From Pararhizobium capsulatum DSM 1112 (GTDB lineage Bacteria > Pseudomonadota > Alphaproteobacteria > Rhizobiales > Rhizobiaceae): 64,000 nt of DNA. Both the position numbers and the translations under genes were made by a program. Of this stretch, positions 19,753 to 45,467 are shown one piece after another. Position 1 is the stretch's first letter. Each line of letters opens with the position of its first letter. The notes under the pieces were generated by a model. That model worked only from the letters and a program-made list of their open reading frames with translations, searched no databases and was not told the origin of the DNA. The stretch lies in assembly GCF_030814475.1 (NCBI RefSeq), contig NZ_JAUSVF010000007.1, positions 48,819 to 112,818 of the forward strand, read 5' to 3'.

Positions 19753-20968
19753 TTGGCGTCGCTCTGGTTCACCTGGTCAATTCGGCCTCAAGGTTGGGAA
19801 ATGCCGAACCCTTGGGACGCCATGGCGGGCGATTACAAGACACCGAATGGATGGATCAAACTCCATACCAATGCCCCGCATCACCGCGCAGCGGCGCTAT
19901 CAGTGCTTGGTTGCGAACCAAGCCGCGAGGCTGTTGCGGACATTGTCAAGACATGGTGTGGAGACGAGCTTGAAGAAGCGATTGTCGCTGCTGGTGGCTG
20001 CGCCGCACGCTTGCGGTCTGTCGAAGATTGGGCTGCCCATCCGCAAGGCGAAGCTGTTTCGGCAGAAAAATTGATACTTTGGGATACACCCGGCAAGCGG
20101 ATGGCAAACGAATGGCAGCCCTCTCCCGCTCGCCCGCTTTCGGGGCTGCGTGTGCTCGATCTGCGGCGCGACAATCAGGATGAGAATCGGCCTCTCATCC
20201 AGATCGCCGCGCTATATCGATCTCACCCGCGTTCTTGCGGGGCCTGTGGCGACGCGATTTCTTGCTGGATTTGGCGCGGATGTCTTGCGTATCGATCCAC
20301 CCGGATGGGATGAACCCGGCGTCATCCCCGAAGTCACATTGGGTAAGCATTGCGCAAGGCTCGACCTCAAGACGCCATCTGGGCGTAATGTCTTTAGTGA
20401 GTTGCTCAACAAGGCGGACATATTGGTTCATGGCTATCGCAGCGACGCACTCGAAGAAATCGGGTTCGGTACCGCAGCGCGACAGGCCGTTCGCCCTGGC
20501 CTGATCGACATATCCCTCGATGCTTATGGCCATAGCGGACCCTGGGCACGGCGGCGCGGCTTTGACAGCCTCGTCCAGTTTTCGTCCGGGATTACTGCAA
20601 CGGGCATGGATTGGCGCAGCGCAGACGCTCCGTTCTCGCTTCCCGTTCAAGCACTCGATCATGCTACAGGCTATCTCCTGGCGGCTGCCGCAGTTCGGGG
20701 TGTGATCGCAAAATCGACAGGCGCAGGCCCAATAAGTGCGCGGCTGTCTCTGGCCCGCACAGCAAAGCTCCTAGTTGATCACAAAGACAGCCCATCCAAC
20801 GCCAGATTTGCACCGTTGATGGATGAAGACTTCGGCACCACCGTTGAACAAACAGATTGGGGACCGGCGCTGCGCTTGCTTCCACCGGTCAACATTGCTG
20901 GCATACCGATGAACTGGACACGGCCAGCAATAAAACTCGGTTCAAACGAGGCGGTCTGGCTTGGTTGA
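19753..20968 (+). pseudogene. Class III (CaiB/BaiF) CoA-transferase, truncated and interrupted
   Basis: Two frames together make one CoA-transferase. Frame one has GWEMPNPWDAMAGDYKTPNGW and LHTNAPHHRAAAL, then PLSGLRVLDL. Frame two resumes with DLTRVLAGPVATRFLAGFGADVLRIDPPGW and runs through the PGLIDISLDAYGHSGPW region to what looks like the natural C-terminus. The break is a 61-bp insertion (20158-20218), not a multiple of three. The first 50 or so residues of the family are also missing, and no start or ribosome-binding site is visible. It is a dead gene in a debris-rich patch. Confidence 0.8.
20158..20218. repeat. 61-bp palindromic insertion inside the CoA-transferase gene
   Basis: GATCT at 20158-20162 recurs at 20219-20223 exactly where the coding frame resumes, so removing 61 bp restores VLDLTRVLAGP. 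Within the insert, GCGGCG (20163-20168) and GGATGAGA (20178-20185) pair with TCTCATCC (20193-20200) and CGCCGC (20205-20210), giving a long hairpin. It resembles small palindromic intergenic repeats known in rhizobia (RIME-like); the exact family is not determined. Confidence 0.65.
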
Positions 20969-25944: not shown

Positions 25945-26718
25945 ATGTATCTTGAGAAAATGCGCCTGGACGGGCAGACCGCCTTCATCACCGGTGGTGG
26001 CCGCGGGATCGGGCTTGCTGCCGCCGAAGCTCTTTTCGAAGCCGGCGCGCACGTCATCATCTCCGACGTCAACGACGAGTTGCTTGAAAGTGGTCGCGCC
26101 TACCTCGCAACCAAGGGCTATGCGGCAGATGCCGTCCGTCTCGATGTCACGCGTCCAGACGATGTGGCGGCCGCCGCAAAGGCAGCGAACGAACGACACG
26201 GTTCCGTCGACATCCTTGTGGCAAACGCCGGAATTGCTTGGCCGGATACTCCAGGGGAAGAGATCGCCGACGACAATTGGAGGCGGCTGATCGACGTCGA
26301 TCTCAACGGGGTCTACTGGTCCTGCCGTGAGTTCGGAAAACACATGCTCGGTCGTTCTAAGGGCGCGATCGTTACGCTCGGCTCTATCTCGGGACTGATA
26401 TCCAACAAGCCCCAGCGGCAAGCTCACTACAATTCCGCCAAGGCCGCGGTCCATCATCTGACGAAAAGCCTTGGTGGCGAATGGGCGGAGCGGGGGGTCC
26501 GGGTTAACTGCGTCGCACCGACTTACGTTGACACGCCGATGTCAAACACAAGCTTCGACGACCCGGAGCGAATGCCGATCTGGATGGATTTTACTCCCAT
26601 GCGGCGTGTCGCAAAACCGGACGAAGTGGCATCCGCGATCCTGTTTCTTGCGAGTGGTGCTTCCAGCGCGATGACTGGGACGGTAATTCCGGTCGATTGC
26701 GGCTATACGATCTGGTGA
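25945..26718 (+). CDS. Short-chain dehydrogenase, probable polyol dehydrogenase
   Basis: 257 residues. Classical SDR: TGGGRGIGLAAAEAL at the cofactor site, NAGIAW, catalytic Ser near LGSISGLIS, and YNSAKAAVHHL (Tyr-x-x-x-Lys). It ends with GASSAMTGTVIPVDCGYTIW. A GGAGG site precedes the ATG, 15 bp after the ATPase stop. In Smo-type operons this position is held by sorbitol or related polyol dehydrogenases that make the ketose, which I infer here. Confidence 0.88.
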   Translation: MYLEKMRLDGQTAFITGGGRGIGLAAAEALFEAGAHVIISDVNDELLESGRAYLATKGYAADAVRLDVTRPDDVAAAAKAANERHGSVDILVANAGIAWPDTPGEEIADDNWRRLIDVDLNGVYWSCREFGKHMLGRSKGAIVTLGSISGLISNKPQRQAHYNSAKAAVHHLTKSLGGEWAERGVRVNCVAPTYVDTPMSNTSFDDPERMPIWMDFTPMRRVAKPDEVASAILFLASGASSAMTGTVIPVDCGYTIW

Positions 26719-26732
26719 TCGCTGGGGCAGGG

Positions 26733-27899
26733 TTAGCTCGCCGCGATCTCACGTAATGCGTTCGCGATGGCTTTTCCGTCGTGCTGGCCCCTGTTCCAGG
26801 CGTCTTCGTACTCGCCGATGATCACGGCGGGCTGATCGCAATCGTCGGTCTCATGTGAAAGGTAGGGGAAGGCGCCGACCGTCTTCTCGAACGGAAAGAG
26901 CACCCTGTTAGCGAGGACATGTGTCAACAGTTGGCGGCGAGACCTATCGTCCCGCTGCCATTGGCTCCGACACGCCCGCAAAATGTCACCAAGCTTTAGA
27001 TCGGTGGTTTCCGGACATTGGAGAATATTGCCGATCCAGACACGAGGGCAATTCACTTTCAACAGTGTGGTGGCGATTTCCTGGATCTGTAAGTGCGGAA
27101 GGAGGCTCGTGAAGACGCTTCCGGGGCCGAAGGCGATCAGATCTGCATTCGCGAGGGCTTCCAGGGCCGCGGGATTAGCTTTCGGCCGATCGTTCGAAGT
27201 CCTTGAAAGCTCGACATAGTCGATACCGATCGTTGCCTCGTCTTCTGACAGCTTGGTAATCGCATCCTGCCGCTCAATCTTTCTGCCGTTTTTCAACGTC
27301 GCGGTGAGGACGAGATCGTTCTCGAGAGACGACGTCCATACATCGCCGACAACGCTGCAGAGCTTGCGGAACACGAACACGGCGGTGTTAATGTCGCCAT
27401 TATGGGCCAGACAGGCGCCGGCAAGGATGAAGTTGCCGATGCTGCCGTTTCTGTAATCGAAGCCCGCTCCGACCGTCGACGCAAACGTCTTCAGATAGTT
27501 CAGGATCGCCCCTCTCAAGCCGGGGTGCATCCGTTCAAGCAAAGGGTGCCGCGCCTCGGAGTAAAATTGAAATTCGGCGCGAGCGACGTCCATCCCGAGA
27601 TTGCTCGACAAACGGGCGTTGCAAATCTTGACAACATCTCCCGCTCGTCCTTCACCATGCGCCATCGTCATCAGGGCCTGGCGAAGGTCGCCCACAGCAA
27701 GGAGGCCCACCTTCTCGCGGATTAGCTTCGAGCTTCCCCCACTATCCCAGCTAGGCACGACACGTGTCAAATGTGCGTTGCCGCAAAGCGCGAGGTTGAT
27801 CGAGCGACAGGCGCTTCCTCCTGAGAACAGGACAATTCGTTTCAATGCTGCTCCACGGATGATGGCGGCGACGTCGTCAGGTGCCGAGTTTCTGTTCAA
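26733..27899 (-). CDS. CofD/YvcK-like protein (GAK-system CofD-related type)
   Basis: 388 residues as an open frame from TTG 27899. An alternative TTG at 27845 with GGAG five bases upstream would start just before the conserved core. The core has IVLFSGGSACRSI at the nucleotide-binding start, WDSGGSSKLIREK and AVGDLRQALMTMA. It then has IGNFILAGACL, ENDLVLTATL, and the ADLIAFGPGSVFTSLLPHL motif that defines the CofD/YvcK superfamily. CofD transfers 2-phospholactate to F420; YvcK relatives bind UDP-sugars and affect central carbon use. Neither role obviously fits a polyol cluster. It overlaps the ROK-fusion gene by 23 bp, so the two are co-translated. Exact function unknown. Confidence 0.82.
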   Translation of the reverse strand: MNRNSAPDDVAAIIRGAALKRIVLFSGGSACRSINLALCGNAHLTRVVPSWDSGGSSKLIREKVGLLAVGDLRQALMTMAHGEGRAGDVVKICNARLSSNLGMDVARAEFQFYSEARHPLLERMHPGLRGAILNYLKTFASTVGAGFDYRNGSIGNFILAGACLAHNGDINTAVFVFRKLCSVVGDVWTSSLENDLVLTATLKNGRKIERQDAITKLSEDEATIGIDYVELSRTSNDRPKANPAALEALANADLIAFGPGSVFTSLLPHLQIQEIATTLLKVNCPRVWIGNILQCPETTDLKLGDILRACRSQWQRDDRSRRQLLTHVLANRVLFPFEKTVGAFPYLSHETDDCDQPAVIIGEYEDAWNRGQHDGKAIANALREIAAS

Positions 27900-29316
27900 A
27901 TGAGTCCGTTATCCACGTCAGAACCGTATCCGTTTCTATCGGTGTCGTAGTGTCAATATCGAACACGGGTCCGAGACCGCAAGGCCTCGCCCGTCGAGCC
28001 AACTCGATGAGTTCCGGCACGTAGGCCAATCCGGGATGGCCGGGCAGCCGTCGGCCGCTGCGTTGTCCATATCGCTGGCCGATTACGTCGGGAGGGGCAT
28101 GGCACCACAGCTCCAGCACTTCCGTTATACCCGCCATTGCGAGATGTTCGCGCAGGACGTCGACGGGTTGAAATCCGAACCAGGCATCGACAATGAACGT
28201 CGAACCAGGAGGGGACTCTTTGATGATTGAGAAAATCGACTTGTAACTGGCACGGCCGAGGACACGATTGAACGGCCGATCGACGTTCTCGATCAATTCG
28301 AGAAATGGGTTCTTCACGGTGTCCAGCGCCAGGATAGGCCAACCGGTTTTCTCGGACAATGAGCCAGCTACTCCGCTTTTTCCGGAAGCGGGAACCCCGT
28401 TGACCATGAGGAGCCGCTTAGCCGTTCCGTGGTTGGAACGCGACACCACTTCGAGGGCGGCAAGCCCTGATCCGATTACGCCGGCATCGTCGCCGAGCTC
28501 TGCAAGGCGGACCGGCACTTGATACCAGGTTTGAAGGTCAGGAAGAAAATTCAAAGAAGCGACGGCGGCCTCACCCATGCCCCCGCCCAGCACGAGGACG
28601 TCGGGATCGAAGGCTGCAGAAAGAGTGTTTATAGCGGCACGTAGAGGCCCGCCCCACGCGCGCATGACGCCGATTGCTCGCTCATTGCCTGCTTCCGCGC
28701 TTTCGCGAACGTGCTCGAAACGAATTTCGGGCCCATAACCGACGTCGTTCAGATGGCGTCGCAATGAAGTGCCCGACGATTCCGTTTCGATACAACCACG
28801 CTGACCACACGGGCAAGGCTGCCCATTTAAGTTGACCACCAGATGACCGAGCTGACCCGCACATCTCTTGCCGTTGACAATCTGGCCGTCCTCCATGACC
28901 GCACCGCCAATCCCAGTGCCGATCGTCATCATGACGGCGTTGCGCAATCCTCTGGCCGCTCCGCGTCGCGACTCGCCGATGAGTGCCATGCTGCAATCAT
29001 TGGCCACCAAGGTCGGGTGACCAAAACTATCTGCAAGCTCGCGTCTCAGATCGACGCCGGAGAGATCCAGGAAACCGCCTGAAATGATCTCGCCCGTCCA
29101 GCCGTTCACTCGTCCGGGGATGCCGACGCCGATGGCCCGAGCGCCGTCTCCATCCATGCTTCGAACCAAGTCCCTGATCAGTCCAAGCGCCGTTGTCGGA
29201 TCGCGGCTTCCGGCGATTGACCGCCTTTCAAGGATCTCTCCTGAGGGAGAGATCCTTGCTACCCGCATATTCGTGCCGCCAACATCAATGCCGATTGCAA
29301 AATCTTTTGGAGACAT
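27877..29316 (-). CDS. ROK sugar kinase fused to a P-loop kinase-like domain
   Basis: 479 residues. Residues 1-295 are a ROK kinase: phosphate loop GIDVGGTNMRVA (9-20), catalytic Asp107 in LVANDCSMALIGE, TIGTGIGGAV, and the zinc motif CPCGQRGC (168-175). Residues 300-479 form a second nucleotide-binding domain with Walker A NGVPASGKS (306-314) and a following LDTVKNPF. That domain resembles small-molecule kinases of the chloramphenicol-phosphotransferase/AAA_33 type. Two phosphotransfer domains in one chain are unusual. With an aldolase next door, sequential phosphorylation of a ketose is an attractive but unproven idea. The gene sits 14 bp after the aldolase gene. Confidence 0.85.
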   Translation of the reverse strand: MSPKDFAIGIDVGGTNMRVARISPSGEILERRSIAGSRDPTTALGLIRDLVRSMDGDGARAIGVGIPGRVNGWTGEIISGGFLDLSGVDLRRELADSFGHPTLVANDCSMALIGESRRGAARGLRNAVMMTIGTGIGGAVMEDGQIVNGKRCAGQLGHLVVNLNGQPCPCGQRGCIETESSGTSLRRHLNDVGYGPEIRFEHVRESAEAGNERAIGVMRAWGGPLRAAINTLSAAFDPDVLVLGGGMGEAAVASLNFLPDLQTWYQVPVRLAELGDDAGVIGSGLAALEVVSRSNHGTAKRLLMVNGVPASGKSGVAGSLSEKTGWPILALDTVKNPFLELIENVDRPFNRVLGRASYKSIFSIIKESPPGSTFIVDAWFGFQPVDVLREHLAMAGITEVLELWCHAPPDVIGQRYGQRSGRRLPGHPGLAYVPELIELARRARPCGLGPVFDIDTTTPIETDTVLTWITDSFEQKLGT

Positions 29317-29330
29317 TTCGTTTGCGAACC

Positions 29331-30242
29331 TCAGGCAGCGGCACTATCGGCGCGGTAGCGGCGGATGATATTCTGAATGTCCTGAAGGCGGGAGATCGCG
29401 ATTGTCGAAAGTTTCTCCTTCGAAACCTTGCGGTCGAGCGAGATGCAATCCTTCCAGAGAGACCTTCCTGCGATGACGCCGGAGGCACCGTTTTTCATTG
29501 CCGCTTCGACCTGTGGAAGGAATGTCTTGTGATCTACACCAGCAGACAGTACCGCCCACGGTACATCGCCGGCGATTTTGGTGACTTCAGCACATGCTTC
29601 CTCCGTCCCAGGATAGGGAATCTTGAGGACCTTGGAACCAAGTTCCAGGCATGCTCTCGAACCCTCGACGATCAGCATCGGAACTTTCGATTCATAGTCT
29701 TCCTTGCTTTCGCCTTCCAGTTGATAGGTTAGGAACTCGACGACAAGCAGCAGGTCTTCCGCAGCGAAGTCCTGGATGCTCTTTTTCAGCGTCTCCAGGT
29801 TCCTCGTATTTGCATCCGGCGTATCCATGCGCAGGTAGATCATGATCTTCCCGCCCGTAGCACCTAGTTCACGCACTTTCCGGGCATCGATGCCGTCAAC
29901 CATCTTTGAGATACGATAGCCCTCGGCGGAAGTTTCCCAACCCGAGGCGTCGATGCCGATTAGAAGTGCAGTATCTCTAGGCAGTATATCGTCGTCCACC
30001 AGTCCGGGAACAGCACAAACCGGATCTACCAACACGCAACCAGCCTTGGAGGCCAGGTACAGGGTGATATCTGCCTTCGTTTCCCCGAGTGTTTCATTAC
30101 TGATTTTCGCCTGTTCTTCGGGGGTCGCCGCGAGTACAGTGCGCATTCCACCCCGCTGATCGCACGCAATTACCATCATGGCTCCGCTAGAATCACAAAT
30201 CTGGTGATAGCCGCGGCGCTCCGCGGTGGTCATAGCTGTCAT
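29331..30242 (-). CDS. LacD/YihT-like class I aldolase
   Basis: 303 residues from the ATG at 30242, with an AGAGGGA site; the longer open frame was trimmed. The family is tagatose-1,6-bisphosphate aldolase LacD and its relatives (YihT, sulfofructosephosphate aldolase). It has VIACDQRGGMRTVL near the start and KADITLYLASKAGCVLVDP. The Schiff-base lysine is expected in GGKIMIYLRMD, and LSAGVDHKTFLPQVEAAMKNGASGVIAGRSLWKD closes the barrel. It would split a ketose phosphate or bisphosphate into DHAP and an aldehyde. It is the first gene of the minus-strand operon, followed by the ROK fusion and CofD-like genes. Confidence 0.87.
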   Translation of the reverse strand: MTAMTTAERRGYHQICDSSGAMMVIACDQRGGMRTVLAATPEEQAKISNETLGETKADITLYLASKAGCVLVDPVCAVPGLVDDDILPRDTALLIGIDASGWETSAEGYRISKMVDGIDARKVRELGATGGKIMIYLRMDTPDANTRNLETLKKSIQDFAAEDLLLVVEFLTYQLEGESKEDYESKVPMLIVEGSRACLELGSKVLKIPYPGTEEACAEVTKIAGDVPWAVLSAGVDHKTFLPQVEAAMKNGASGVIAGRSLWKDCISLDRKVSKEKLSTIAISRLQDIQNIIRRYRADSAAA

Positions 30243-30471: not shown

Positions 30472-31401
30472 ATGGTGGCAAAGCTTCACTATGAAAGCGA
30501 TATGCCGCAAGTCGAGATTGCGAAGAAGCTGGGCGTTTCCACCGCGACAGTTTCACGGCTTCTTACGAGGGCGCGGGCGCTTGGAATTGTACGGATCCAG
30601 GTCATGGACCTGGTGATTCCAGACGAGATTACGGCCCGTCTGATTGAGGTTCTCGGTTTGAAGCGCGCCGCCGTGGTCGATACACCTTCGACCGGTGTTC
30701 TTTCCTCGTTGGCAACGCCTCTTGGTAATATGCTGAAGGACGAAAACCTCTCGAAGGGAGCTGTCGTCGGAATAGGTTGGGGGCGCGCGGTGCGCGAGGT
30801 CATACAAGCCGGTTTGCCACGGGTACCAGAAGTTCGTGCAGTTGCGTTGAACGGGGGATTGCAGCAGTCCGCCCCTCATTTTCAGATCAATGAGTTTGTT
30901 CGCCAGGCCGCAGAGCAATTCGGTGGCACGGCGCACTTTCTGCACGCCCCATACGTCTCTTCTGTCGAACTGAGAGACGCGTTCCTCACTGACCCAGTCG
31001 TCAAGCAAACTACGGGTCTCTGGGATCAACTTGACTGTGCGATCGTGGGGATCGGTCTTCCCCATGCGATAAACCCTCCGGAGGCAAGTGCAGCCACGAT
31101 TAGCGAGCAGGACATCGGAGGAGCGGTCGGCGACGTTATTCGACATTACGTCGATCGCGACGGCGCCCTTCTTCACTGGGAGGGAGAGGAACGAATGATT
31201 GCGGCGTCGGTCGCGCAGTTGCGGAACGTGGGACTGTCAATTGGCGTCGCCGCGACCGTTGAAAAGGCTGCTGGGATAGTGGGAGCTGTTCGGTCCGGAA
31301 TGATCAACGCCCTTGTAACAGACACCACGACGGCGCTCGCTGTTTTGGAAATCTGTGAGGCCGACCCAAAGATCCATGCCGATCGGGCTGCTCAGAAATA
31401 G
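30472..31401 (+). CDS. SorC/DeoR-type sugar-binding transcriptional regulator
   Basis: 309 residues. N-terminal HTH LHYESDMPQVEIAKKLGVSTATVSRLLTRARALGIVRIQV, typical of SorC-family regulators, then the phosphosugar-binding domain with GAVVGIGWGRAV, TGLWDQLDCAIVGIG and LVTDTTTALAVLE. No ribosome-binding site is seen before the ATG at 30472, and the HTH begins unusually close to the start, so a few residues may be missing. It is divergent from the aldolase operon and probably represses it until a phosphorylated sugar accumulates. Confidence 0.88.
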   Translation: MVAKLHYESDMPQVEIAKKLGVSTATVSRLLTRARALGIVRIQVMDLVIPDEITARLIEVLGLKRAAVVDTPSTGVLSSLATPLGNMLKDENLSKGAVVGIGWGRAVREVIQAGLPRVPEVRAVALNGGLQQSAPHFQINEFVRQAAEQFGGTAHFLHAPYVSSVELRDAFLTDPVVKQTTGLWDQLDCAIVGIGLPHAINPPEASAATISEQDIGGAVGDVIRHYVDRDGALLHWEGEERMIAASVAQLRNVGLSIGVAATVEKAAGIVGAVRSGMINALVTDTTTALAVLEICEADPKIHADRAAQK

Positions 31402-31653: not shown

Positions 31654-32403
31654 ATGACCACAGCCCTCTCAGTCAACGTCAACGCGATAGCTTTTCTCCG
31701 GAATCGACGGAAACTTCCTTGGCCAAGTGTCGAAGGCTTGGGCAGGATCGCCCTTGATGCCGGAGCACAGGGGCTGACCGTGCACCCAAGGCCAGATGAA
31801 CGACACATCCGCTTCGCCGATCTGCCCGTTCTTAGAAACCTGATTGACGAATTCAGGGGTGCGGAGTTCAACATCGAAGGTTATCCGACCCGCCAGTTTT
31901 TGGACCTCTGCCGCGATTCCCGTGCCGACCAGGTAACTCTCGTTCCCGATGATCCCCTGCAGGCGACTTCCGATCATGGTTGGGATTTCAGGAAGCATAA
32001 AGCCTTTCTGATCGAGGCAGTGTCGGAGCTCAAAACCTCAGGGATCCGTGTTTCGGTGTTCGCTGACGGTGACGGTGATGAAGGCTCGATGGACGTTGCG
32101 AAGGAAGTCGGAGCCGACCGGATTGAATTGTATACCGGACCATATGGTGGATGCTTCGATGATCAAGAGCGAGCCCTCGTCGTTCTTGAGCAGTTGGGTC
32201 GGACAGCCGATGCTGCGCGCGCGCGCGGCCTTGACGTCAACGCCGGCCACGATCTGACGGTGGCGAACCTGCCCAAGCTGATCGAGAGAATTCCCTATTT
32301 GGCCGAGGTGTCAATCGGCCATGATCTAACCGCCGATGCTCTGACGCATGGGATGGCAGAGACTGTTCGTCGTTTTCGACAATCTTGTGGACAAATGATC
32401 TGA
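31654..32403 (+). CDS. PdxJ-like pyridoxine 5'-phosphate synthase homologue
   Basis: 249 residues, full PdxJ length. The TIM barrel has [26 protein letters not shown] (phosphate and substrate contacts), [14 protein letters not shown] with the conserved Glu, [32 protein letters not shown] and [13 protein letters not shown]. All the usual His and Glu positions are present. PdxJ makes pyridoxine 5'-phosphate from deoxyxylulose 5-phosphate and aminoacetone phosphate. Lying between a SorC regulator and sugar-modifying genes, this copy may be a paralogue with another aldol-type role. There is no strong ribosome-binding site at the ATG. Confidence 0.83.
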
Positions 32404-32428
32404 TTAATTTTGAGTTCTGGACACCGTT

Positions 32429-33115
32429 ATGACTGAAATAAAATCTGTAATCTTCGACTGCGACGGTGTTTTGGTCGATTCCGAAATCATTGGTATAAAG
32501 ATCGAAGTAGAACTCCTTCATGGAGCGGGTTGCGAAATAAGTGTCGAGCAATTGGCCGAGCGTTTCAGTGGCATGAGTTGGAAGGATATTCTGCTCATCC
32601 TGGAGAAGGAACGCGGGTTGAGCCTGATGGATTTGCTGCTCGACAGGACCGAAGCTGAACTCGATGTGCGCATTCCGGCAGAGGCCCGAGCAATAGACGG
32701 CGTGCTGGCAGTCCTGCAAGAATTGCGGTATCCCCGCTGCGTTTGTTCAAACACAAAATTATCGCGTGTCGAAGAGGTTCTGACCAACGTTGGCCTAAAA
32801 GAATTCTTTGCGCCTAATATCTATTCGGCAAAGGATCTGGGTGAGGGGAGGTCCAAGCCGAAGCCTGACATTTTTCTGTTCGGCGCACAGCAAATGGGGT
32901 TCGATCCGTCACAAACCGTGGTGATTGAAGACTCGGTTCACGGTGTTCACGCCGCGCGCGCCGCTGGTATGCAGGTCATAGGCTTCACCGGAGGATCCCA
33001 CACATATCGTGATCATTCCGAAAACCTTCTCGAGGGGGGTGCTCGGTCGACCATTTCGGATATGCGGGACCTGCCTGCGGCCATCGGCGCAATCACCAGC
33101 CTCCATCGCGGCTAA
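32429..33115 (+). CDS. HAD-superfamily phosphatase/phosphoglucomutase-like protein
   Basis: 228 residues. Subfamily IA HAD: nucleophile motif VIFDCDGVLVDSE, a helical cap, CSNTKLSRVEEVL (motif II), KPKPDIFLF with the motif III Lys, and VVIEDSVHGVHAARAAGM (motif IV). It hydrolyses or isomerises a phosphosugar in the cytosol. It lies 25 bp after the PdxJ-like gene and before the polyol SDR, so a sugar phosphate of this pathway is the likely substrate. Confidence 0.88.
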   Translation: MTEIKSVIFDCDGVLVDSEIIGIKIEVELLHGAGCEISVEQLAERFSGMSWKDILLILEKERGLSLMDLLLDRTEAELDVRIPAEARAIDGVLAVLQELRYPRCVCSNTKLSRVEEVLTNVGLKEFFAPNIYSAKDLGEGRSKPKPDIFLFGAQQMGFDPSQTVVIEDSVHGVHAARAAGMQVIGFTGGSHTYRDHSENLLEGGARSTISDMRDLPAAIGAITSLHRG

Positions 33116-33181
33116 GGACAAAAGCTGAACCATCGGTGCGATGTCGATGCCGGATATACAATCAAATGCAAGGAGACTCGA

Positions 33182-33910
33182 ATGACAGGCATCCTCGATG
33201 GCAAAATTGCAGTCATCACTGGCGCGGCCTCGGGCATTGGACTGGCGACGTCCAAAGTCCTCATGGCAGAGGGAGCGACGGTTGTGATGGTGGATCGAAA
33301 TAAGGTCGCGCTTGACGACTTGGTCGCTGCCAACGGAGACAAAGCAATTGCGCAGGTGACTGATCTCCTGAATGCCGAAAGCTGCGCGGCGATGGTTTCA
33401 GAAATCTTGGCTAAGACAGGTAAAATCGACATCCTTTATTGTAATGCGGGCACATACATTGGCGGCGACCTGATCGACACCAACGCGGAAGCAATCGATC
33501 GAATGCTGAACCTCAATATCAATGCCGTCATCAAAAACGTACACGCTGTTCTGCCGCATATGATCGAGCGGGGAACCGGAGATATCATTGTCACAAGTTC
33601 ACTCGCCGGACACGCGGCAATCAAACACGAACCCGTGTACTCTGCGTCGAAATGGGCAATGACCTGCTTCACACAGACAACACGGCGTCAAGTCAACAAA
33701 CACGGCATTCGCGTCTCCCAAGTATCGCCAGGCCCAGTGATATCCGCACTGCTTGCCGACTGGGAGCCAGAACGGCTCCAGGCCGTCAAGGACGCGGGAG
33801 CCGTTATCGAACCTAAGGAAGTCGCAGAGGCTGTTCTGTTTATTCTAAGCCGCCCGCGCAATGTGACCATTCACGACGTAATCGTATTGCCGACTAATGT
33901 AGACGGCTAG
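33182..33910 (+). CDS. Ribitol-2-dehydrogenase-like SDR
   Basis: 242 residues. SDR with [45 protein letters not shown] and the unusual C-terminal VTIHDVIVLPTNVDG. The NAGTYIGG and TTRRQV elements and the ending closely resemble Klebsiella ribitol 2-dehydrogenase, which oxidises ribitol to D-ribulose with NAD+. AAGGAGA precedes the ATG. It strengthens the case that this region handles pentitols or hexitols. A different polyol preference is possible. Confidence 0.85.
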   Translation: MTGILDGKIAVITGAASGIGLATSKVLMAEGATVVMVDRNKVALDDLVAANGDKAIAQVTDLLNAESCAAMVSEILAKTGKIDILYCNAGTYIGGDLIDTNAEAIDRMLNLNINAVIKNVHAVLPHMIERGTGDIIVTSSLAGHAAIKHEPVYSASKWAMTCFTQTTRRQVNKHGIRVSQVSPGPVISALLADWEPERLQAVKDAGAVIEPKEVAEAVLFILSRPRNVTIHDVIVLPTNVDG

Positions 33911-34847: not shown

Positions 34848-35318
34848 ATGGATCCTGATAGTCGCGTGGTTGCGGCCTATCTGCTTGCTTTGCCCATCGG
34901 GTGGGATCGGGAAAAGAGCGAACGGAGCGCCGGACTTCGCACGTTCCCGCTTGTCGCCATCGCGAGCTGTGGTTTCATCCAAGCCACCGAGCACCTTACT
35001 GCTGGCAATCCGGAGGCCACCGCCCGGATAGTCGAGGGCCTGATCACCGGAATGGGGTTCATCGGCGGTGGCGCAATCCTTGTTGTTAAAAACAATGTCA
35101 AAGGCACCGCAACCGCCGCCAGTTTGGGGGCGACTGGAGCGGTTGGCACTGCGGTTGGCCTGGGCTCGTACGACATAGCAGTCGTTTTGTCAGTCATGAC
35201 CTTCTTCACCCTGCGGATCATGACGAACTTGAAGCCCGACGCACCCAGCGACGAGCAAAACAGTAGTCATACCGCGTCGCACCGAGCGCCATGCAGCTAT
35301 TGTCTACGCCCCCAGTAA
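34848..35318 (+). CDS. MgtC/SapB-family membrane protein, altered C-terminus
   Basis: 156 residues. The MgtC N-terminal membrane domain is clear: VVAAYLLALPIGWDREK, AGLRTFPLVAIASCGF, GLITGMGFIGGGAILVV and KGTATAASLGATGAVGTAVGLGSY. Four or so membrane helices fit an inner-membrane protein; MgtC relatives act in magnesium or phosphate homeostasis. The last 20-odd residues (SSHTASHRAPCSYCLRPQ) are not family-like and read through into a convergent kinase fragment, so the 3' end was probably replaced by a rearrangement. The N-terminus may also be slightly short. Confidence 0.7.
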   Translation: MDPDSRVVAAYLLALPIGWDREKSERSAGLRTFPLVAIASCGFIQATEHLTAGNPEATARIVEGLITGMGFIGGGAILVVKNNVKGTATAASLGATGAVGTAVGLGSYDIAVVLSVMTFFTLRIMTNLKPDAPSDEQNSSHTASHRAPCSYCLRPQ

Positions 35319-35961
35319 TCACCTTGACGCCGGCGGGCAGTCCCAGCCCAAGAGCGATATCGGGCAATACCTCGCCGACGACATCGGTAGAGGCTATCGC
35401 CCGCGGCATCAGCCCTGGCTCGAGGCCTGCGGCTGCAAGCAGCTCGGGCGAATAGCGGCGTGCTTCAAGATCATAGACGCCCGTGCCGGATGCGTAAGAA
35501 TGATCGGTCGCGATGATGCCGGTCAAGCGGAAGTTGATATAGTCTTTTGTGCCGATGATGGTGCGCGTCCGCGCGAACAACTCAGGTTCATGGGTACGCA
35601 GCCAATGGATCTTGAAGATGGGGTAGAGCGGCGCTGGGAAGCCGTTGCCAGTCTTTCGATACCATTCTTTTTTGTCGAGGCGGGTGAAAAACGCTTCCGC
35701 TTCTGCCTCGGCCCGGCCGTCCGACCAAATCGGCACGCGATCCTGAAGCAAGACGCCATCGGCATCGAGCGGCACGCAACCCAGGCTGTGCCCCGACAAT
35801 GAAATTGCCCTGATCGATGTGGGATCAACGCCTGGTGCAGCCAGTAGAGCCAGAATACTGCGGCTGACGACATCCCACCAGTCGAGCGGCCGCTGTTCGT
35901 GGCGGGAGGGTGACGGATAAAAATACTGGTCGCTGGAACAGGCAAAGCTAAAAAAGCCTAG
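35218..35961 (-). pseudogene. FGGY carbohydrate kinase fragment
   Basis: The frame right after the DeoR stop codon encodes the middle of a FGGY kinase: PLDWWDVVSRSILALLAAPG, IRAISLSGHSLGCVPLD, PIWSDGRAEAEAEAF, GTKDYINFRLTG, ATDHSYASGTGVYDL and ITGGVDNSCMALGA. The N-terminal phosphate-1 loop (D-x-G-T) is absent and similarity stops near 35278, before the ATP-binding half. It converges on and overlaps the MgtC-like gene end. It probably was the kinase partner of the DeoR regulator upstream, lost by deletion. Confidence 0.75.
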
Positions 35962-44579: not shown

Positions 44580-45467
44580 ATGGCAGATCTCGACGACATC
44601 AAGGACGGCAAGGACTGGGGACAGGATCGCCCTGCAGATACAAGCCGCTTCTATCTCAAGGGCGCCGCTCATCACGATTGGGGCATGAAGGCACGCCTAT
44701 CTCGGATCTTCAACCATAAGAGCGGCAAGACCGTCATGCTCGCCTTTGACCATGGCTACTTCCAGGGCCCGACGACCGGGCTCGAGCGCATGGACCTGAC
44801 GATCGCGCCGCTTGCGGCGCATGCGGATGTTTTGATGTGCACTCGCGGGGGGTTGCGGACGACCATTCAGCCCGAGGTCAATAAGCCCGTGGTCCTTCGA
44901 TGCAGCGGCGGCAACAGTATCCTAACGGAGCTTTCGAACGAACTCGTCGCTGTCGATATTGATGACGCCATTCGGCTGGGTGCCGTTGCGATGGCAGCGC
45001 AGGTCTATGTGGGGGCGGAACACGAACACAAATCGATCGGCAACGTCATCAAGTTAATCGATTCCGGCACGCGCTACGGCATTCCGACGATGGCGGTTAC
45101 TGGCGTGGGTAAGGATATGGTTCGTGATGCCCGCTATTTCGGTTTGGCGACCCGCATCGCTGCCGAACTCGGTGCTCAGTTCGTCAAGTCCTACTATGTC
45201 GAGACCGGCTTCGAAAAGATTGTGCTCGGCTGTCCGGTGCCCATCGTGATCGCTGGAGGCAAGAAACTACCCGAGCGCGAAGCCCTTGAGATGGCCTGGC
45301 TGGCTATTGATCAGGGCGCGGCAGGTGTCGACATGGGGCGCAACGTCTTTCAGTCGTCCAATCCGGTGGCAATGCTCAAAGCCCTGGCTTCAGTCGTTCA
45401 CCATGGCGAAACTAGCGAGCAGGCTTACAACCAATTTCTTGATCTGGACCATCAGAAGGCGGAATGA
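44580..45467 (+). CDS. LsrF-like thiolase / class I aldolase
   Basis: 295 residues, very similar throughout to E. coli Lsr[63 protein letters not shown], and [19 protein letters not shown]. Lys203 (FVKSYYVE) occupies the position of the LsrF catalytic lysine. LsrF uses 3-hydroxy-2,4-pentanedione 5-phosphate and CoA to give DHAP and acetyl-CoA in AI-2 breakdown. No other Lsr protein is recognisable here, so it probably cleaves a different C4-C6 ketose phosphate made by DhaKL or the FGGY kinase. It overlaps the next gene by four bases. Confidence 0.9.

What the first reader, a model, noticed from the sequence alone, without database searches (positions are those of the whole stretch)
26733..30242. 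CofD/YvcK-like protein, double-kinase fusion and aldolase as one operon beside a polyol importer
Seen: three minus-strand genes (LacD-like aldolase, ROK plus P-loop kinase, CofD-like) with 14-bp spacing and a 23-bp overlap, flanked by a Smo-type polyol ABC operon with SDR on one side and a SorC regulator on the other. Known: CofD transfers phospholactate to F420 and YvcK-like proteins bind UDP-sugars; neither is a normal sugar-catabolic enzyme. Inferred: a pathway in which a polyol is oxidised, phosphorylated and cleaved, with the CofD-like protein as a new phosphoryl or nucleotidyl transferase or as a flux sensor. This is my best candidate for an undescribed system.
Basis: partly seen in the sequence, partly recalled or inferred. 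Interest (0 to 1): 0.78.

Follow-up and report, generated by a model that had tools for sequence, protein, structure and literature searches.

The report
Ketose-splitting operon with optional CofD-like gene
A probably plasmid-borne sugar-alcohol island in a rhizobium-like bacterium carries a common kinase-plus-aldolase pair for splitting a six-carbon sugar, to which a relative of the cell-wall regulator GlmR has been added in only two of the lineages examined; the idea that all three form one new pathway is mostly not borne out.

Summary
The genes are real: LacD-like aldolase, ROK plus P-loop fusion, CofD-like protein, on one strand. Two details change: the CofD-like start is more likely TTG 27845, so the 23-bp overlap becomes a 31-nt gap, and its closest fold is GlmR/YvcK, not CofD.

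The three-way link mostly fails. LacD and ROK/P-loop sit together in 35 of 35 family loci examined, usually with SorC and a ribose-type importer; none has the CofD-like gene. Of 44 other CofD-like loci, 1 has LacD and the kinase. In 394 genomes both occur in 2, about chance.

The exception matters: an Agrobacterium rubi plasmid has the same 12 genes in the same order, CofD-like gene included, at 67-93% protein identity. So it is a maintained optional addition. A relative with the same surroundings minus this gene shows an empty site.

Best reading: ROK makes a ketose phosphate, the P-loop domain probably adds a second phosphate, LacD splits the bisphosphate. A Sodalis plasmid supports this: a PTS stands where ROK would be. 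The CofD-like protein is probably a GlmR-like accessory.

The parts
26733..27845 (-). CofD-like protein, 370 aa from TTG 27845 (frame opens to TTG 27899); GlmR/YvcK fold
27877..29316 (-). ROK sugar kinase (residues 1-290) fused to a small P-loop kinase-like domain (about 296-479)
   Evidence: PF00480 160 bits, AAA_33 22.6 bits; DVGGT, CPCGQRGC and GVPASGKS motifs; separate genes in 8 of 35 family loci
29331..30242 (-). LacD-like class I aldolase, 303 aa
   Evidence: PF01791 64 bits; nearest solved: 8tnf, YihT/SFP aldolase and tagatose-bisphosphate aldolases; Lys207 in SKVLKIPYP, present in the 5 relatives checked
30472..31401 (+). SorC/DeoR-type sugar-phosphate-responsive regulator (by family), divergent
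   Evidence: PF04198 157 bits; a SorC relative lies in the stretch around 33 of 35 family LacD loci, 27 on the opposite strand
25945..26718 (+). SDR, probable polyol 2-dehydrogenase, convergent with the operon
   Evidence: best solved relatives 3awd 'putative polyol dehydrogenase' 255 bits, 2wdz galactitol dehydrogenase 196 bits
21689..25930 (+). Smo-type polyol ABC importer: SBP, two permeases, ATPase
   Evidence: PF01547 for the SBP; SBP best solved relative 4rya '(Sorbitol)' 541 bits over residues 25-439; permeases and ATPase from the frames and the annotated A. rubi counterparts
31654..33910 (+). PdxJ paralogue (31654-32403), HAD phosphatase (32429-33115), SDR (33182-33910)
   Evidence: PF03740 250 bits, HAD 82 bits, adh_short 178 bits; same three genes in the same place in A. 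rubi

Best explanation
This is a catabolic island, probably plasmid-borne, for a hexitol and its ketose. Shown: gene content, neighbourhoods, fold. Inferred: the chemistry. The Smo-type importer brings in a hexitol; the SDR oxidises it to a ketohexose; ROK puts on the first phosphate; the P-loop domain probably puts on the second; the LacD-like class I aldolase splits the bisphosphate into two triose phosphates; SorC senses a pathway phosphate. D-tagatose is the likeliest ketose. The CofD-like protein is not a step of this route. It is a GlmR-fold accessory found in varied gene neighbourhoods, mostly in Hyphomicrobiales, and was added to this island before the window and A. rubi copies parted. 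Its likeliest job is GlmR-like: helping cells that receive only triose phosphates keep fructose-6-phosphate flowing to cell-wall precursors.
For: LacD with ROK and P-loop in 35 of 35 family loci (27 fused, one of them split over two frames; 8 separate), SorC relative around 33 of 35, CUT2 ATPase/permease/SBP clusters in 30/27/26 of 35. In plasmid records 24 of 24 with ROK-P-loop also have LacD. Sodalis praecaptivus: EIIA/EIIB/EIIC-GAT PTS genes, separate P-loop protein (42%), LacD (74%), HAD (45%), no ROK detected in the 18.9-kb locus, so the PTS appears to stand in for ROK. The CUT2 SBP of one such relative (L102) is close to 5dkv (529 bits), recalled as D-tagatose-bound. CofD-like: GlmR fold; A. 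rubi has the same 12-gene order, CofD dN 0.22, dS not computable, third positions differ at 59%; empty site in L102. In B. subtilis GlmR is needed on gluconeogenic carbon because F6P is limiting (PMC6171935, abstract and passages).
Against: No substrate is shown by any search; the ligand of 5dkv is recalled and could not be confirmed. Sodalis also has a PfkA-type kinase in the operon, which could do the second phosphorylation there and leaves the P-loop role open. Of the three residues proposed as catalytic in Listeria GlmR (D40, D41, N198; PMC10128056, passages) only the first is kept; the others are Ser (22 of 23 rows, Asn in one) and His (23 of 23) in this subfamily, so a uridyltransferase activity is doubtful. 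Several CofD-like contexts (hexapeptide-like protein 10, IMPase 7, NUDIX 5 of 44) do not suggest gluconeogenic growth. The window has no CUT2 tagatose-type importer beside SorC.
Confidence: 0.55

Rival explanations
1. The CofD-like protein is a true pathway enzyme: a nucleotidyl or phosphoryl transferase acting on a ketose phosphate made by this island.
For: Same strand, 31 nt behind the kinase gene; kept under constraint in two lineages in the same place. The two divergences from GlmR at proposed catalytic positions, S35 (Asn in 1 of 23 rows) and invariant H251, hint at different chemistry.
Against: Absent from 35 of 35 other LacD-kinase loci, and in 43 of 44 other CofD-like loci neither gene was found. 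The closest relative, S. fredii L155 in a 100/100 clade with the window and A. rubi, sits beside an inositol-monophosphatase-like gene and an ABC ATPase gene, not LacD.
Confidence: 0.15
2. The CofD-like gene is a neutral passenger carried with the island on plasmids.
For: Scattered gene neighbourhoods; both copies lie on plasmid-type replicons (repC on contig C7; pW2_73_1, typed as conjugative).
Against: Window and A. rubi copies differ at 59% of third codon positions but only 21% and 18% of first and second, which points to purifying selection; 78 columns are invariant over 23 rows.
Confidence: 0.15
3. The P-loop domain is not a second sugar kinase but a regulator or a kinase for another molecule, and ROK plus LacD act on a substrate that needs one phosphate, as in sulfosugar routes.
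For: P-loop Pfam matches are weak (AAA_33, CPT); LacD is about as near YihT sulfofructosephosphate aldolase as solved tagatose-bisphosphate aldolases; Sodalis already has a PfkA.
Against: P-loop is beside LacD in all 35 family loci and in the Sodalis locus, where ROK is replaced by a PTS. No sulfosugar partner gene was recognised among the listed clusters (by eye, no search made).
Confidence: 0.25

Closest known systems
GlmR/YvcK (Bacillus, Listeria; UDP-sugar binding, GlmS activation, accessory uridyltransferase)
   Different: Second Asp is Ser and Asn198 is His; 370 aa against 323-341 for the solved YvcK chains; here behind a kinase-aldolase operon
GAK system CofD-like protein (TIGR04357)
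   Same: Best NCBIfam match, 185 bits; an Alloyangia protein so named also lies beside ABC transporter genes
   Different: Well under the cut-off of 340 bits; GAK partner genes were not sought in this genome
CofD / FbiA, 2-phospho-L-lactate or PEP transferase for F420
   Different: 13.6 bits against a cut-off of 257; 13-17% identity
LacC-LacD tagatose-6-phosphate pathway
   Same: LacD-family aldolase with kinases beside it
   Different: No PfkB-type LacC in the operon; a ROK plus P-loop fusion takes its place; lacD equivalog 59 bits against 432
S. meliloti smo locus and galactitol to tagatose catabolism (PMC10433430, passages; Kohlmeier 2019 seen only as a title in its reference list, not held)
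   Same: SmoEFGK-type importer and SDR polyol dehydrogenase; galactitol use tied to a tagatose operon
   Different: No ROK-P-loop match at E 1e-40 in Sinorhizobium plasmid records; whether the pSymB tagatose operon is homologous was not tested

Membership tests
GlmR/YvcK | Whole-length GlmR fold | tested here: met
GlmR/YvcK | TIGR01826 curated score | tested here: not met
   105 bits, cut-off 196
GlmR/YvcK | Proposed catalytic residues D40, D41, N198 of L. monocytogenes GlmR | tested here: not met
   D34 kept, S35 (Asn in 1 of 23 rows) and H251 instead; numbering transferred by hand through B. halodurans 2hzb
GlmR/YvcK | Needed for gluconeogenic growth or UDP-GlcNAc supply | not testable with these tools
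   needs a mutant
CofD / FbiA (F420) | TIGR01819 curated score | tested here: not met
   13.6 bits, cut-off 257.45
GAK system CofD-like (TIGR04357) | Curated score | tested here: not met
   185.5 bits, cut-off 340
GAK system CofD-like (TIGR04357) | GAK partner genes nearby | not tested
   no search for the GAK ATP-grasp or HprK-like families was made; their names are recalled
LacD tagatose-bisphosphate aldolase | lacD equivalog TIGR01232 score | tested here: not met
   59 bits, cut-off 432; best is subfamily NF009498 at 145 bits, cut-off 184
LacD/DeoC class I aldolase superfamily | PF01791 above cut-off and a Lys at the Schiff-base place | tested here: met
   64.3 bits, cut-off 23.8; Lys207 in the VLKIPYP stretch that aligns with LYKVEMP of YihT; that this Lys is the YihT Schiff-base residue is recalled
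ROK sugar kinase | PF00480 above cut-off, nucleotide and zinc motifs | tested here: met
   160 bits, cut-off 22.9; DVGGT at 11, CPCGQRGC at 168; motif roles recalled

The most novel reading that the evidence does not exclude
LacD with ROK and a CPT-like P-loop kinase is an undescribed, widespread ketohexose route in which a new kinase family replaces LacC-type tagatose-6-phosphate kinase, and in two plasmid lineages it has acquired a portable GlmR-type protein that adjusts cell-wall precursor supply to growth on triose phosphates, a metabolic checkpoint moved about with catabolic operons.
Probability: 0.25. Interest if true: 0.65.

Novelty: new variant of a known kind. Interest (0 to 1): 0.42.

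Why it matters
The conserved aldolase-kinase pair is a clean target: one fusion protein and one aldolase should carry a free ketose to triose phosphates, with a P-loop domain that the Pfam and NCBIfam matches do not assign to that step. The CofD-like subfamily gives GlmR-fold proteins of Alphaproteobacteria a testable role: does a GlmR relative go with operons that feed carbon in below fructose-6-phosphate? A word search for YvcK with rhizobia listed 3 papers whose titles concern other subjects (none opened).

Tried and rejected
Rejected: a fixed three-gene system; a purely accidental insertion in one strain, because A. rubi has the same arrangement with signs of constraint; an F420 role.

Led nowhere: paper searches for CofD with ROK and aldolase (none), GAK system with CofD (none), 5DKV (none), tagatose with ROK and SorC (none); tagatose with ROK family and Agrobacterium (2 listed, not opened); the genus of G340 for further CofD-like genes (0 of 9, no positive control); phages (three weak matches below 30% identity). 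The Ensifer adhaerens matches H13-H15 (26% of the query) were not examined.

Limits: family genomes are an even sample of 394 from a larger group; thresholds were E 1e-40 for LacD and 1e-30 for the CofD-like protein. Genome contigs could be scanned once and with exact peptides, so close relatives only. Of the 44 CofD-like loci three pairs look like one contig fetched twice, by equal contig length (L041/L156, L058/L161, L059/L158), and four loci hold under 4 kb on one side of the gene (L043, L058, L161, L168); L168 holds only 0.26 kb upstream, the side where the kinase would be. The marker proteins were taken from L166, L168 and L176, which therefore count themselves. L053 (shortened match) and L165 (interrupted) were left out of the tree, as were the loci other than L155.

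Corrected on checking: a by-eye count of 82 invariant columns is 78 by script.
Full report
What is there. The window holds three minus-strand genes, LacD-like aldolase (29331-30242), ROK plus P-loop fusion (27877-29316) and a CofD-like protein (26733-27845), with a Smo-type ABC importer and SDR converging from one side and a SorC-type regulator diverging on the other, followed by PdxJ, HAD and SDR genes. The reported 23-bp overlap depends on a far upstream TTG; most relatives' starts and a GGAG five bases ahead favour TTG 27845, which leaves a 31-nt gap.

Does the trio hold together elsewhere? The aldolase was sought in 394 family genomes: 34, the window's own included, have a match at E 1e-40. 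The neighbourhoods of the other 33, plus two same-genus loci found, were fetched (35 loci). In 35 of 35 a ROK domain and the P-loop lie beside LacD, fused in 27 (one split over two frames) and separate in 8; a SorC relative lies in the fetched stretch in 33, on the opposite strand in 27; no locus has a CofD-like gene. CUT2 importer clusters (ATPase, permease, SBP) are in 30, 27 and 26 of 35 (cluster identity read from sequence, from the plasmid annotation of similar loci, and for one SBP). In plasmid records 24 hold the fusion and 25 the aldolase; the 24 are all among the 25, and the extra one is Sodalis. Of those 24 records one, A. rubi, is also among the 15 with a CofD-like match.

LacD and ROK-P-loop were found in 1 of 44, the A. 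rubi plasmid. Other neighbours are amino-acid- or oligopeptide-type ABC operons, a disulfide-reductase-like gene and a DAHP-synthase-like gene (read from sequence by eye), a protein with a weak hexapeptide match (10 of 44; 23 bits, under the cut-off of 27), inositol monophosphatase relatives (7) and NUDIX (5) (three loci supplied the markers and count themselves). In the 394-genome sample the CofD-like gene is in 20 and LacD in 34, both in 2 (the window's genome and G241, where they lie at 4,434,183 and 690,818 of one contig), against 1.7 expected. In the window's genus it is in 1 of 26 genomes, the window's own. The whole PF01933 family has one match in the window's genome and is present in 32 of 199 family genomes.

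The exception. Agrobacterium rubi W2/73 plasmid pW2_73_1 carries all 12 genes in the same order: SDR, HAD, PdxJ, SorC, then LacD, ROK-P-loop, CofD-like, then SDR, ATPase, two permeases, SBP. Protein identities run from 67% (HAD) to 93%; CofD-like is 71%. dS is 1.9-3.0 in the 6 of 12 genes where it could be computed and not computable in the other 6, CofD-like among them; CofD-like dN is 0.22, with 59% of third and 21% and 18% of first and second positions changed. So the CofD-like gene appears to have been kept in place over a long divergence. Locus L102 has the importer, SDR, fusion, LacD and SorC in the same order without it: 85 nt between SDR and fusion stops instead of 1158 in the window. 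Gain in the shared lineage is the simplest reading (inference). The window copy is on a 112.8-kb contig with a repC gene.

How it most likely works. The aldolase keeps a Lys where YihT-type aldolases have one. In Sodalis praecaptivus a PTS of the EIIC-GAT type, a separate P-loop protein 42% identical to ours, LacD (74%) and HAD (45%) lie together on one strand and no ROK is detected in the 18.9-kb locus; a PTS phosphorylates its sugar on entry, so ROK is most simply the first kinase and the P-loop the second. A PfkA-type gene in that operon weakens the last step. The SDR is nearest polyol and galactitol dehydrogenases, the importer SBP nearest 4rya, and the CUT2 SBP of L102 nearest 5dkv, which I recall as a D-tagatose complex without confirmation. 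For the CofD-like protein I favour a GlmR-like accessory role: the aldolase yields only triose phosphates, and in B. subtilis GlmR is needed on gluconeogenic carbon, where fructose-6-phosphate is limiting for peptidoglycan precursors; [quoted passage not shown] This is inference and I give it about one chance in three.

Verdict. Ordinary core, unusual addition. The aldolase-kinase pair is a real and widespread variant of ketose catabolism for which the paper searches here listed no title describing it (open-access library only, of the listed papers only PMC10433430 was opened, by passages). The CofD-like gene is optional and probably not an enzyme of the route.

Noticed in passing
31654-32403: Second PdxJ in the genome (the other on contig C1; 65% identical). 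PdxJ relatives also lie within about 6 kb of LacD in 3 of 35 family loci (L111, L112, L121) and beside SorC on the Rhizobium sp. SL42 plasmid: a recurrent, unexplained partner. Whether the copies in L111, L112 and L121 are the only PdxJ of their genomes was not tested.
   Followed up: partly
L174:5024-10687 (Sodalis praecaptivus pHS1): PfkA, GAT-type PTS, separate P-loop protein, LacD and HAD in a row on one strand: a PTS version of the same route.
   Followed up: partly
L166:7337-10804, L168:257-3021: CofD-like gene directly followed by a protein with a weak hexapeptide match and an inositol monophosphatase; recurrent pairing (hexapeptide-like protein in 10 of 44 loci), a possible better clue to its function.
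   Followed up: partly
20150-20968 and 35218-35799: Partial CoA-transferase III and partial FGGY kinase frames on either side of the island, which suggest past rearrangement at its edges.
   Followed up: no
44580-45467: A second DeoC/LacD-family aldolase, behind a Dak1 dihydroxyacetone-kinase gene and an ABC importer.
   Followed up: no
G000:C7:12862-13383: repC on the contig that holds the window, so the contig is probably a repABC-type plasmid.
   Followed up: partly
L165:8004-8642: Allorhizobium ampelinum S4 plasmid holds a shortened CofD-like gene behind a hydantoinase and aminotransferase gene row.
   Followed up: no
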